DNA of 64,000 nucleotides from positions 62,001 through 126,000 of the forward strand of contig MGPE01000015.1 of assembly GCA_001797335.1 (NCBI GenBank), given 5' to 3'. Below are positions 38,275 through 53,032 of the stretch, piece by piece. The notes under the pieces are model-generated. The model was not told the origin of the DNA, searched no databases, and was given only the letters and a program-made list of their open reading frames with translations. How positions within the stretch are numbered: the first letter of the stretch is position 1; every line of letters starts with the position of its first letter. Position numbers and translations under genes: made by a program. This stretch comes from Deltaproteobacteria bacterium GWA2_38_16 (GTDB taxonomy: Bacteria > Bdellovibrionota > JACOXK01 > 2-02-FULL-40-11).

Positions 38275-39903
38275 ATGGGAAATCTAACCTGGATTACGCT
38301 TTTTGGGGGACTTTGCATCCTTATTTTTGGATTAAATCTCACCCGAGATCACCTGCAAAAAATTGCCGGGGATCGTCTCCGAAGCGTCTTAGCCAAACTA
38401 ACAGAACACAGACTTCTGGCTTTTCTAACCGGTTTTTTGATGACTTTGGTACTCCAAAGTAGCTCAGCTGCCATTGCCATGATTGCAGGATTTGCCGCGT
38501 CAGCCCTTCTCACTCTCACCCAAGCCATGGTTTTAATTTTAGGAGCAGATCTGGGGACTACGATTATTGTCCAGCTCTTGGCATTTCACCTAGCCGACTA
38601 TTCGCTTTTATTCATTATGCTGGGATTTATAGGTATTACGATTTTAAAAAATCAAAAACAAGCGTACGGATATTTTTTATTGGGAATTGGATTTATTTTT
38701 CTAGGCATGTGGCAAATGAGCACCGCATCTGCTCACTTTCAAAATTCTGAAATTTTGAAACTCGCCCTTGAGCTTCTCAAAGACTATCCCCTTGTCTCTC
38801 TCTTCATTGCAGCTGTCTTAACAGCACTTCTTCAAAGCAGTGCTGCTTCTATTGGGATTATGCTTTCTTTAGCACATTCTCATATCTTACCTATTTCTCA
38901 AGCCATCCCTCTCATTATTGGAGCCAACATTGGCGGATGTGCTCTTCCGATGATCGTTTCTTTCAAATTGGGGGATCGAGGGAGGCAGGTCGCTATTGCT
39001 CATGTGCTGTTAAAAGTATTGGGCGCCATTCTTATTCTTCCCTTTCTTTCTTCTTTCGAAAATCTGGTAGTACACACCTCCACAAGCGAAGCCCGTCAAA
39101 TCGCGAATGCTCATTTTTTATTTAATGCACTCATGGCTTTTATTTTTACCCCTCTTACCCACATCGGTGCCAGTATCATCCAAAAATTGTACCCTCTAAA
39201 ACCAGAGCCCGAAGCCTTTCGCCCTAAATATTTAGACCCTCAGGTACTCACCACCCCTTCTTTTGCCTTTGGGCAGGCTACCCGAGAAGTCATTCGTATG
39301 GCTGAAATTGTTCAAGAAATGCTTGAAAAATCAATGCTGGTTTTTCGAAAAAACGATCTCATTTTACACTCTCAAATTGAAAAATTAGAAGAAAAATCAG
39401 ACATTCTCTACCGAGAAATTAAAAAATATTTAATTCAACTTTCCCAACAACCCCTTTCTTCTCAACAAGCTAATCAACAATCGGAACTGGTTATTTTAAC
39501 CTGCGATCTAGAAAATGTGGGAGATGTTATTGTAAAATCTATTTTACCGCTGGCCAAAATAAAAATTCAAAAGAAACTTTATTTTTCAGATGAAGGGTTT
39601 AAAGAAATCAGAGAGTTTCATGAGCAGGTGATGCAAAATTTTCAACTGACCATTTCTGCCTTTACCAATCAAAATGTAGATCTCTACCGACAAGTCATTA
39701 AAAACAAAGATCAAATGCTCACCACAGAACTCGAACTTAGGGAAAACCATCTTATTCGACTAAGGCATGGTGTTAAAGAAGCTCTAGATACAAGCTCCAT
39801 TCACATAGAACTCTTAAGCTACTTTGGACGGGTCAATGCTTTTACCAGCAATATTGCCTATCAGATTTCACAAAAAGAAAATACGAATAACCACAAACAA
39901 TAA
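38275..39903 (+). CDS. Na/Pi cotransporter family protein with PhoU-like domain
   Basis: A 542-residue type II sodium-phosphate cotransporter. Two inverted transport repeats carry the QSSS motif (LQSSSAAIAMIAGFA near 62) and its mate QSSAASIGIMLSLA (near 185). Eight or nine spans lie in residues 1-305; a cytoplasmic helical PhoU-like domain (about 340-535) follows. Divergent from nuoB copy 2. No regulatory site recognised. Confidence 0.92.
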   Translation: MGNLTWITLFGGLCILIFGLNLTRDHLQKIAGDRLRSVLAKLTEHRLLAFLTGFLMTLVLQSSSAAIAMIAGFAASALLTLTQAMVLILGADLGTTIIVQLLAFHLADYSLLFIMLGFIGITILKNQKQAYGYFLLGIGFIFLGMWQMSTASAHFQNSEILKLALELLKDYPLVSLFIAAVLTALLQSSAASIGIMLSLAHSHILPISQAIPLIIGANIGGCALPMIVSFKLGDRGRQVAIAHVLLKVLGAILILPFLSSFENLVVHTSTSEARQIANAHFLFNALMAFIFTPLTHIGASIIQKLYPLKPEPEAFRPKYLDPQVLTTPSFAFGQATREVIRMAEIVQEMLEKSMLVFRKNDLILHSQIEKLEEKSDILYREIKKYLIQLSQQPLSSQQANQQSELVILTCDLENVGDVIVKSILPLAKIKIQKKLYFSDEGFKEIREFHEQVMQNFQLTISAFTNQNVDLYRQVIKNKDQMLTTELELRENHLIRLRHGVKEALDTSSIHIELLSYFGRVNAFTSNIAYQISQKENTNNHKQ

Positions 39904-39904
39904 C

Positions 39905-40489
39905 TTAGTTATGTTTCCCAAAATATTGTTTGGAGGCTGTCGGATTTGGCTTCATCGTATCTTTTCCAGGTGTCCAGTTAGCGGGGCAAACTTCTCCCGT
40001 TTTTTTGACTTGTTGAATGGCCGCTAAAACACGAAGCGTTTCATCCACATTTCGGCCAATCCCTAAGTCATGAACAACGCTATATTGAACAACCCCTTCT
40101 GGATTAATGATAAAAAGTCCTCGAAGTGCAATACCAGAATCTAAAAGAACGCCATAATCACGAGCAATATTTTTAGTTAAATCAGAAAGGAGTGGATACC
40201 GAAGTTCTCCCAATCCCCCTTCTTTTCTGGAAGTATTGATCCATGCCAGATGGGTGAAATGGCTATCGACAGAAGCCCCAATCACTTCGGCATTGAGTTC
40301 CTTAAATTTCGAATAGGCATCGCTAAAAGCAATAATTTCAGTGGGACATACAAAGGTAAAATCAAGGGGGTAGAAAAATAAAACTACCCATTTTCCTTTA
40401 TAATCCGAAAGTTTTACCTCTTTAAATTCTTTTCCTACGACGGCCTGGCCTTTAAACTCAGGCGCTGGTTTTTGAACGAGTGTTGACAT
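39905..40489 (-). CDS. Typical 2-Cys peroxiredoxin
   Basis: A 194-residue AhpC/Prx1-type peroxidase for hydrogen peroxide and organic peroxides. Peroxidatic Cys48 in DFTFVCPTE, resolving Cys in GEVCPANW near the C-terminus. The start is the ATG of MSTLVQKP with AAGGAGG upstream. Ends 1 base from the end of the convergent transporter gene. Confidence 0.95.
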
Positions 40490-40506
40490 ACAAATCCTCC
40501 TTTTTA

Positions 40507-40532
40507 GATCCCCGATCAAGTCGGGGATGACA
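40507..40532. repeat. REP-like palindrome, family R2
   Basis: GATCCCCGATCAAGTCGGGG then ATGACA. Sits directly upstream of the peroxiredoxin ribosome site. Confidence 0.8.
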
Positions 40533-52067: not shown

Positions 52068-52089
52068 TGGTTGCGGGGGTAGGATTTGA
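52068..52089 (-). repeat. Second copy of the tRNA-fMet 3' end, with encoded CCA
   Basis: Read on the minus strand this is TCAAATCCTACCCCCGCAA followed by CCA. The first 19 bases are identical to the 3' end of the tRNA-fMet gene 158 bases away (52229-52247), which lacks CCA. It looks like the original 3' end displaced by an insertion. The 139 bases between contain hairpins (AAAATCGC/GCGATTTT, ACCTGC/GCAGGT) and no gene. Confidence 0.6.
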
Positions 52090-52196
52090 CTTACGGTCAA
52101 AATCGCTTTGCGATTTTGCCTCCAGTCGGGGCTCGCTCGCACCTGCTAAAGCAGGTAGCCGCTCAGCTGCGCCATTCAAATCACCCCTTTTGTCGC

Positions 52197-52217
52197 AAAT
52201 AGTCCACTGGACTATTT
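52197..52217. terminator. Perfect hairpin downstream of tRNA-fMet
   Basis: AAATAGTCCA-C-TGGACTATTT, a 10-bp stem with one base between, 12 bases past the tRNA 3' end. It has no clear run of U after it, so it could be a terminator or processing signal. Confidence 0.4.
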
Positions 52218-52268
52218 ACTTAATAAAATTGCGGGGGTAGGATTTGAACCTACGACCTCCGGGTTATG

Positions 52269-52916
52269 CATACCAACTACAGCTTGCGCTGCCCCTCCTT
52301 CTTAAGAAAGGTTTGTGGTCTGGACTTTCTCTTCACCCCTCATCAGGGTGCCTACCATTAAGTCTCTACACCTTCTTCACTAGTTTTAAACCTAATGAAG
52401 CTTGGCTCGGGATTACCTCGCTACAGGCTTCCCCGAATTTGATAGGAGATCCCACATGGGTTTCCCTACGTGTCGCCCATTGCAGAATTAAATTCCAAGC
52501 GTCTCGGTATTCGGCAGAACGCGGTTTGCGTTGACGTTTTTCCTCTTCTACAAGATGAATTTCACTGCCGTACTCAATGAACACACCTACAGGGAAAACA
52601 TAGAAAATATTCTTACCTGCAATATAAATTACAGCAAAGTCAAAATCAGATGATTGATAAGCTTCTCGAATCATATCTCGTCGATTCGTCTTTGTTCGAC
52701 GATTATCGACAACATAATTCAAAGAGGATTCATCTAACCATGCTGATTTTACCTGAATCTTCACAAGAACTCCCTCCACATCAAAAACCAAATCGTAAGG
52801 AAGTCGATCGCCAACAGGCTTCAGAACTCCCCATCCCCGTTTCAATCCTTGAAGGACGGTTTCTTGTTCAGCTATGTCTCCTTTGAGTTTTGTATCCATA
52901 GTTAATTCTGCGGTTG
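52269..52916 (-). other. Group I intron (IC3-like) in tRNA-fMet, 648 nt
   Basis: Core elements read on the minus strand: P (AAATTCGGGGAAGCCT, 52440-52425), Q (AATCCCGAGCCAAGC, 52414-52400), R (GTGTAGAGACTTAATGG..., 52371-52347) and S (AAGTCCAGACC, 52327-52317). R and S pair as GACTT/AAGTC to form P7. The 5' exon ends in U and the intron ends in G, as group I introns require. P1 is extended by a perfect 10-bp pairing of GCAGAATTAA (52911-52902) with TTAATTCTGC (52491-52482). The endonuclease frame lies in the P1 loop and runs into the core. Confidence 0.88.
52366..52899 (-). CDS. Intron-encoded PD-(D/E)XK homing endonuclease, I-Ssp6803I type
   Basis: A 177-residue protein beginning MDTKLKGDIAEQE. 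The expected catalytic residues are in order: Glu11, Asp36 (LPYDLVF), Gln49 and Lys51 (KIQVKSA), the Q-x-K variant reported for I-Ssp6803I of the Synechocystis tRNA-fMet intron. It would cut intron-less tRNA-fMet genes to spread the intron. The start is 17 bases after the 5' splice site. The last 41 codons overlap the P1 3' strand and the P and Q elements, and the stop lies in R. The frame is intact, so the enzyme may be active. Confidence 0.88.
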   Translation of the reverse strand: MDTKLKGDIAEQETVLQGLKRGWGVLKPVGDRLPYDLVFDVEGVLVKIQVKSAWLDESSLNYVVDNRRTKTNRRDMIREAYQSSDFDFAVIYIAGKNIFYVFPVGVFIEYGSEIHLVEEEKRQRKPRSAEYRDAWNLILQWATRRETHVGSPIKFGEACSEVIPSQASLGLKLVKKV

Positions 52917-53032
52917 AGCCCGACGAGCTACCAGGCTGCTCCACCCCGCGATAATGAAAGAAGTGGTAACACACCCTTCTTTATCCTGTCAATTCAATTG
53001 CCAAACCAATGGAAAAACGCTAAAGCAAAAAT

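What the first reader, a model, noticed from the sequence alone, without database searches (positions are those of the whole stretch)
52229..52950. Initiator tRNA split by a group I intron with homing endonuclease, outside the cyanobacteria
Seen: exact tRNA-fMet halves, a 648-nt intervening sequence beginning after U33 and ending in G, P/Q/R/S core elements, and an I-Ssp6803I-type endonuclease with Glu11, Asp36, Gln49, Lys51. Known: this intron/endonuclease pair was described from cyanobacterial tRNA-fMet. Here it sits among genes of a proteobacterium-like genome, which would mean horizontal transfer of the intron.
Basis: partly seen in the sequence, partly recalled or inferred. Interest (0 to 1): 0.9.

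Follow-up and report, generated by a model that had tools for sequence, protein, structure and literature searches.

The report
Homing intron in initiator tRNA
The only initiator-tRNA gene of an uncultured, non-cyanobacterial bacterium is interrupted by a self-splicing-type intron that encodes a DNA-cutting enzyme of the kind first found in the cyanobacterium Synechocystis; the intron is real and almost certainly moves between species, and database searches show the same intron/enzyme pair in at least a dozen bacterial phyla, so it is a new member of a known element rather than a new kind.

Summary
Observation confirmed. Window 52229-52950 (minus strand) is a tRNA-fMet gene (C1xA72 mismatch, CAU) split by a 648-nt group I intron after U33 and ending in G. 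Rfam Intron_gpI scores 61.8 bits. The intron encodes a 177-aa enzyme, about 67% identical to I-Ssp6803I (2OST), with the PD-(D/E)XK residues intact and dN/dS about 0.17 against its sister copy. The enzyme gene lies in the loop of an extended P1 helix. No other tRNA-fMet was found in this genome (estimated 100% complete), so splicing must work.

The host is not cyanobacterial: rpoB groups with 'deltaproteobacterium'-like lineages. Two genera of the same family carry an uninterrupted tRNA-fMet, one with conserved neighbours on both sides.

'Outside the cyanobacteria' is correct but not exceptional: the same insertion with the enzyme inside occurs in 41 other non-cyanobacterial loci from at least a dozen phyla. 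Trees support horizontal spread but do not place the window inside a cyanobacterial clade.

In passing: directly 3' of this tRNA lies an apparently undescribed ~120-nt structured element that duplicates the tRNA's own 3' end and carries a segment complementary to it. I found 45 copies in 14 related genomes, typically 3' of tRNA or tmRNA genes, with strong covariation. That is probably the more novel feature here.

The parts
52917..52950 (-). 5' exon of tRNA-fMet (CGCGGGG...CGGGCU, ends at U33)
   Evidence: sequence, ARAGORN
52269..52916 (-). group I intron, 648 nt, starts C, ends G
52902..52911 (-). P1-extension 5' strand GCAGAAUUAA
   Evidence: pairs perfectly with 52482-52491; equivalent pairing in most relatives
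52366..52899 (-). homing endonuclease gene, 177 aa (P0001), PD-(D/E)XK, I-Ssp6803I family; its 3' end overlaps the ribozyme core
   Evidence: dN 0.064 / dS 0.384 against G001 over codons 1-133
52482..52491 (-). P1-extension 3' strand UUAAUUCUGC, inside the enzyme ORF
52475..52479 (-). internal guide sequence (UGGGC): pairs with G31-C32-U33 (U.G wobble at the splice site) plus intron C1-A2 in P1; could pair with exon-2 CA in P10
   Evidence: read; P10 is inference
52295..52474 (-). catalytic core P2-P9 (Rfam Intron_gpI alignment runs 52295-52495)
52229..52268 (-). 3' exon of tRNA-fMet (CAUAACCC...CCCCCGCAA, no CCA)
52071..52228 (-). separate feature: structured tRNA-3'-end element following tRNA-fMet, ending in an exact 19-nt duplicate of the tRNA 3' end (52071-52089) that keeps CCA and the native 3' flank
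   Evidence: models R1 and R2 match 52076-52192

Best explanation
A mobile group I intron of the tRNA-fMet / I-Ssp6803I type. The RNA folds with P1 formed by exon 1 and the internal guide, removes itself from pre-tRNA-fMet after U33, and restores the CUCAUAA anticodon loop. The encoded PD-(D/E)XK enzyme cuts intron-less tRNA-fMet genes at the anticodon region, so that repair copies the intron in (homing). It reached an ancestor of this genome and its relative G001 by horizontal transfer from an unidentified donor within a pan-bacterial pool, not demonstrably from a cyanobacterium. Shown here: anatomy, homology, purifying selection on the enzyme, empty site in relatives, no second tRNA-fMet found, cross-phylum spread. 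Inferred: splicing, cleavage and homing (known for the Synechocystis relative from the literature).
For: Rfam 61.8 bits. Enzyme E 2.6e-64 to 2OST. P1 plus P1 extension bracket the gene in the window and in most relatives folded, with differing sequences. No intact tRNA-fMet in the 100%-complete genome: the other CAU tRNAs read as elongator Met and Ile2. Sister copy in G001: 89% identical protein, dN/dS about 0.17. Uninterrupted tRNA-fMet in G002 (neighbours conserved on both sides) and G003 (conserved neighbours on one side). Same insertion point with the enzyme inside in 46 loci counting the window and G001. Strongly supported cross-phylum sister pairs in both trees, e.g. L059 Pseudomonadota with L064 Ktedonobacteria (98/99 and 100/99), and Nitrospirota with Methylomirabilota.
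Against: No transcript or biochemical evidence. The 89% enzyme identity to G001 lies within the 73-90% seen for most host proteins, so within this family the intron may be vertically inherited. Cross-phylum partners are mostly metagenome bins, so some placements may be binning errors. The backbone of both trees is unresolved.
Confidence: 0.93

Rival explanations
1. The intron was transferred directly from a cyanobacterium into this lineage.
For: The best-studied copies are cyanobacterial; the protein is about 67% identical to the Synechocystis enzyme.
Against: The nearest rows after G001 are Planctomycetota, Nitrospirota and Muproteobacteria for the enzyme and Actinomycetota, Nitrospirota and Methylomirabilota for the intron. 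The cyanobacterial label needs 4-5 changes on the trees and the window is in no cyanobacterial clade.
Confidence: 0.05
2. Ancient vertical inheritance: the intron was in tRNA-fMet of a common ancestor and lost in most lineages.
For: Insertion point identical everywhere; the window and G001 share it, and an enzyme-less tRNA-fMet intron occurs in G010 of the same phylum.
Against: The enzyme is found in only 2 of 368 genomes of the phylum, at least 38 of 59 relatives have an uninterrupted site, and the trees cross phyla with support. G010's intron does not group with the window's.
Confidence: 0.03
3. Decayed or domesticated intron: it splices but the enzyme is no longer active, so it is inherited only vertically within this family.
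For: Enzyme divergence from G001 is comparable with host genes.
Against: Catalytic residues intact, dN/dS about 0.17, full-length ORF.
Confidence: 0.1

Closest known systems
Synechocystis PCC 6803 tRNA-fMet group I intron with I-Ssp6803I (intron 655 nt, ORF 150 aa; PMC1995217)
   Same: Same gene, same insertion point after U33 (seen here in L122, S. salina), similar size, homologous enzyme with the same active site, enzyme gene in the P1 loop
   Different: Host lineage; about 33% amino-acid divergence; ORF runs 27 codons further into the ribozyme core (177 vs 150 aa)
Enzyme-less tRNA-fMet introns of Nostocales with the enzyme gene free-standing close by (28 cyanobacterial loci)
   Same: Same intron site and homologous enzyme
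   Different: In the window the enzyme is inside the intron
Free-standing I-Ssp6803I-like genes directly upstream of and touching phage tRNA-Met (L046-L049)
   Same: Homologous enzyme next to tRNA-Met
   Different: No intron was detected; 53-62% identity to the window enzyme
Other bacterial tRNA group I introns (tRNA-Leu(UAA), tRNA-Ile2, tRNA-Arg)
   Same: Anticodon-loop group I introns
   Different: Different tRNA; the four tRNA-Leu introns compared group apart in the tree

Membership tests
Group I introns | Covariance-model match to the catalytic core | tested here: met
   RF00028 61.8 bits, cut-off 50
Group I introns | P1 with U.G wobble at the 5' splice site and terminal G | tested here: met
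   U33.G pairing and last base G read from sequence and duplex prediction
Group I introns | Guanosine-initiated self-splicing | not testable with these tools
   needs an RNA assay
Subgroup IC3 | Subgroup-specific peripheral helices | not tested
   only homology to the cyanobacterial tRNA-fMet intron; no subgroup model available
I-Ssp6803I-type PD-(D/E)XK homing endonucleases | Sequence homology and catalytic E11/D36/Q49/K51 | tested here: met
[quoted passage not shown]
I-Ssp6803I-type PD-(D/E)XK homing endonucleases | Cleaves intron-less tRNA-fMet at the anticodon region | not testable with these tools
   needs purified protein

The most novel reading that the evidence does not exclude
This tRNA-fMet gene is invaded twice. 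Besides the known intron, its 3' end carries a copy of an undescribed family of tRNA-anchored structured elements: each copy duplicates its host tRNA's 3' end from about T-loop position 56 and carries 8-15 nt complementary to that same end. It may be a small mobile element, or an RNA, that recognises its target by base pairing.
Probability: 0.55. Interest if true: 0.75.

Novelty: new member of a known kind. Interest (0 to 1): 0.42.

Why it matters
It shows that an essential single-copy gene for starting protein synthesis depends on a selfish ribozyme in a non-cyanobacterial lineage, and that the I-Ssp6803I intron is a cross-phylum element rather than a cyanobacterial speciality. The intron-bearing and intron-less sister genera at one locus make homing and flanking co-conversion directly testable. 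Standard tRNA finders miss the gene, so 'missing tRNA-fMet' in metagenome bins may often be this intron.

Tried and rejected
Rfam's own placement of P1 (52485-52495) was rejected, because the splice-site P1 lies across the enzyme ORF. ARAGORN labels such as Leu(caa), Ser(cga) for several relatives are artefacts of anticodon placement; the flanks are tRNA-fMet. Two rpoB rows (Muproteobacteria, Thermoanaerobaculia) sit on very long branches, probably because the longest ORF picked was not rpoB, and are ignored. No relative in plasmids; only weak phage matches in INPHARED (30-40%). For the side element: no Rfam family covers it even at relaxed threshold (the one sX4 match runs over the neighbouring tRNA and is below its cut-off), nothing in phages, plasmids or viral contigs, none in 349 Pseudomonadota genomes (a search without a positive control). 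Its ribozyme, integron-attC and retroposon readings were considered and could not be decided.

Full report
OBSERVATION. On the minus strand, exon 1 (52917-52950) is CGCGGGGUGGAGCAGCCUGGUAGCUCGUCGGGCU, the intron runs 52916 to 52269 (648 nt, ending in G), and exon 2 (52268-52229) is CAUAACCCGGAGGUCGUAGGUUCAAAUCCUACCCCCGCAA. The joined exons have the C1xA72 mismatch and GGG/CCC anticodon stem of a bacterial initiator. A default ARAGORN run finds no tRNA in the window; with long introns allowed it reports tRNA-Met(cat) with a 648-nt intron. Rfam Intron_gpI reaches 61.8 bits against a cut-off of 50.

ENZYME. The ORF 52366-52899 (177 aa, P0001) matches Pfam PDDEXK_5 at 1e-49 and the solved I-Ssp6803I (2OST) at 2.6e-64, at 67% identity. 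D36, Q49 and K51 are identical in all 82 aligned sequences and E11 in 80 (2OST itself reads Q11, while the Synechocystis salina copy L122 reads E11). Between this genome and its relative G001, dN is 0.064 and dS 0.384 over codons 1-133, so the enzyme is under purifying selection.

RNA ANATOMY. The exon/intron junction pairs with an internal guide at 52475-52479: G31-C, C32-G, U33.G, then intron C1-G, A2-U. A 10-bp extension of P1 (52902-52911 with 52482-52491) encloses the enzyme gene, whose 3' part is therefore read in two ways, as codons and as P1/P2/core. Equivalent brackets with different sequences appear in most of the 44 introns tested by duplex prediction. Because exon 2 also begins CA, it could replace intron C1-A2 on the guide in P10 (inference).

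HOST. The window is contig C15:62001-126000 of a 2.0-Mb genome estimated 100% complete. Its rpoB protein sits inside a supported group with Desulfococcaceae and a 'deltaproteobacterium' RIFCSP genome, apart from Nostoc. That RIFCSP genome belongs to a different, smaller phylum set (46 genomes) than the window's (368 genomes). Genome sizes and contig numbers of the window's phylum suggest Bdellovibrionota, but no named record confirms this. Two genera of the same family, G002 and G003, carry an uninterrupted tRNA-fMet. In G002 window genes flank it on both sides (38275-39903 and 39905-40519 on one side; 54215, 56478, 57315 and 59399 on the other) at 57-83% identity for most. In G003 the conserved neighbours lie on one side. 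These are the empty sites. The exons next to the insertion differ slightly between the intron-bearing pair (CGGG/CCCG) and the empty ones (CAGG/CCTG), which fits co-conversion but does not prove it. No other tRNA-fMet was found: the two other CAU tRNAs (L020, L022) read as Ile2 and elongator Met, and the uninterrupted tRNA-fMet pattern has no match in this genome. If no copy is missing from the assembly, the intron must splice for the cell to live.

SPREAD. A scan of 84,980 species genomes with the enzyme alignment returned 101 relatives, 80 kept. In 44 of them the gene lies inside a tRNA-fMet intron with the same insertion after U33: 3 cyanobacterial, 41 not. By record title the latter come from Nitrospirota, Methylomirabilota, Chlamydiota, Pseudomonadota, Thermodesulfobacteriota, Chloroflexota, Actinomycetota, Elusimicrobiota, Acidobacteriota, Armatimonadota, Bacteroidota, Omnitrophota, Planctomycetota, a RIFCSP deltaproteobacterium and several Patescibacteria. 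With the window and G001 that makes 46. In most cyanobacterial loci the enzyme is free-standing close to an enzyme-less tRNA-fMet intron. Four viral contigs have it free-standing directly upstream of a phage tRNA-Met. In the enzyme tree and the intron-core tree the window pairs with G001 (99/99 and 100/94) and does not nest among cyanobacteria. Several supported sister pairs cross phyla in both trees. Horizontal spread is therefore well supported; a cyanobacterial donor for this copy is not.

KNOWN OR NEW. The Synechocystis intron and enzyme are the prototype (PMC1995217). The tRNAscan-SE 2.0 paper reports 36 genomes whose missing tRNA-fMet or tRNA-Ile2 prediction is due to group I introns, citing cyanobacteria for tRNA-fMet (PMC8450103). 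I found no paper in the held library describing the enzyme-bearing tRNA-fMet intron across many phyla, but most subscription papers are not held. The window copy is a new member of a known kind.

SIDE OBSERVATION. Directly 3' of exon 2 lies a ~158-bp segment ending in an exact 19-nt copy of the tRNA 3' end; that distal copy carries CCA and the native 3' flank, while exon 2 lacks CCA. Similar segments follow tRNA-Ser(tga), tmRNA and tRNA-Arg(tcg) in this genome, each ending in its own host's 3' end, and a fifth follows tRNA-Val(cac). A model from four copies finds 45 matches in 14 of 368 genomes of the phylum, and one more was found in a neighbouring phylum, after tRNA-Gly. Of 30 loci examined, 25 have a tRNA or tmRNA at most about 250 nt upstream, nearly all with a direct repeat of its 3' end (usually 16-22 nt) and a complementary segment near the start of the element. 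The complementary segment fits its own tRNA better than others (mean score 10.5 against 5.6; 0 of 20,000 permutations reach this), and the direct repeat likewise (17.2 against 5.5). The predicted fold shows strong covariation: 93% of cells paired, score 0.667 against at most 0.087 when partners are slid (the alignment was fitted to the structure, which favours it). In G007, three elements follow tRNA-Gly, tRNA-Tyr and a Thr-Trp pair in one cluster. No Rfam family matches it. What it does is open.

Noticed in passing
window 52071-52228 (-); also G000 C14:13665-13782, C8:98148-98264, C2:146058-146174, C8:163415-163531: Undescribed ~120-nt structured element following tRNA/tmRNA genes: duplicates the host tRNA's own 3' end (mostly 16-22 nt, starting in the T-loop) and carries 8-15 nt complementary to it; 45 copies in 14 related genomes, strong covariation, no Rfam family.
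   Followed up: partly
L220 1065-1963 (G007): A tRNA cluster in which tRNA-Gly, tRNA-Tyr and a Thr-Trp pair are each followed by a copy of that element.
   Followed up: partly
L219 5022-7956 (G359): Two copies of the element 2.8 kb apart, both ending in the 3' end of tRNA-Arg(cct), with LysR-like and other ORFs between them; could be the two ends of a larger integrated unit.
   Followed up: no
L034 (G004), L036 (G055): ARAGORN reads group I introns in tRNA-Asn(GUU) genes; the intron cores group together, apart from tRNA-fMet and tRNA-Leu introns.
   Followed up: no
L046-L049 (viral contigs): Free-standing I-Ssp6803I-like gene directly upstream of and touching a phage tRNA-Met; possible intron-less homing at tRNA genes.
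   Followed up: partly
L063-L119 cyanobacterial loci, e.g. L080: In Nostocales and other cyanobacteria the enzyme gene lies outside, close to an enzyme-less tRNA-fMet intron (28 loci).
   Followed up: partly
L173 (G010): Same phylum, other family: tRNA-fMet intron of 235 nt without an enzyme gene, not grouping with the window's intron.
   Followed up: partly
G001:C171 and C8: G001 yields two rpoB stretches (contigs C182 and C8) that pair together beside the window's in the tree; probably a strain mixture in that bin.
   Followed up: no
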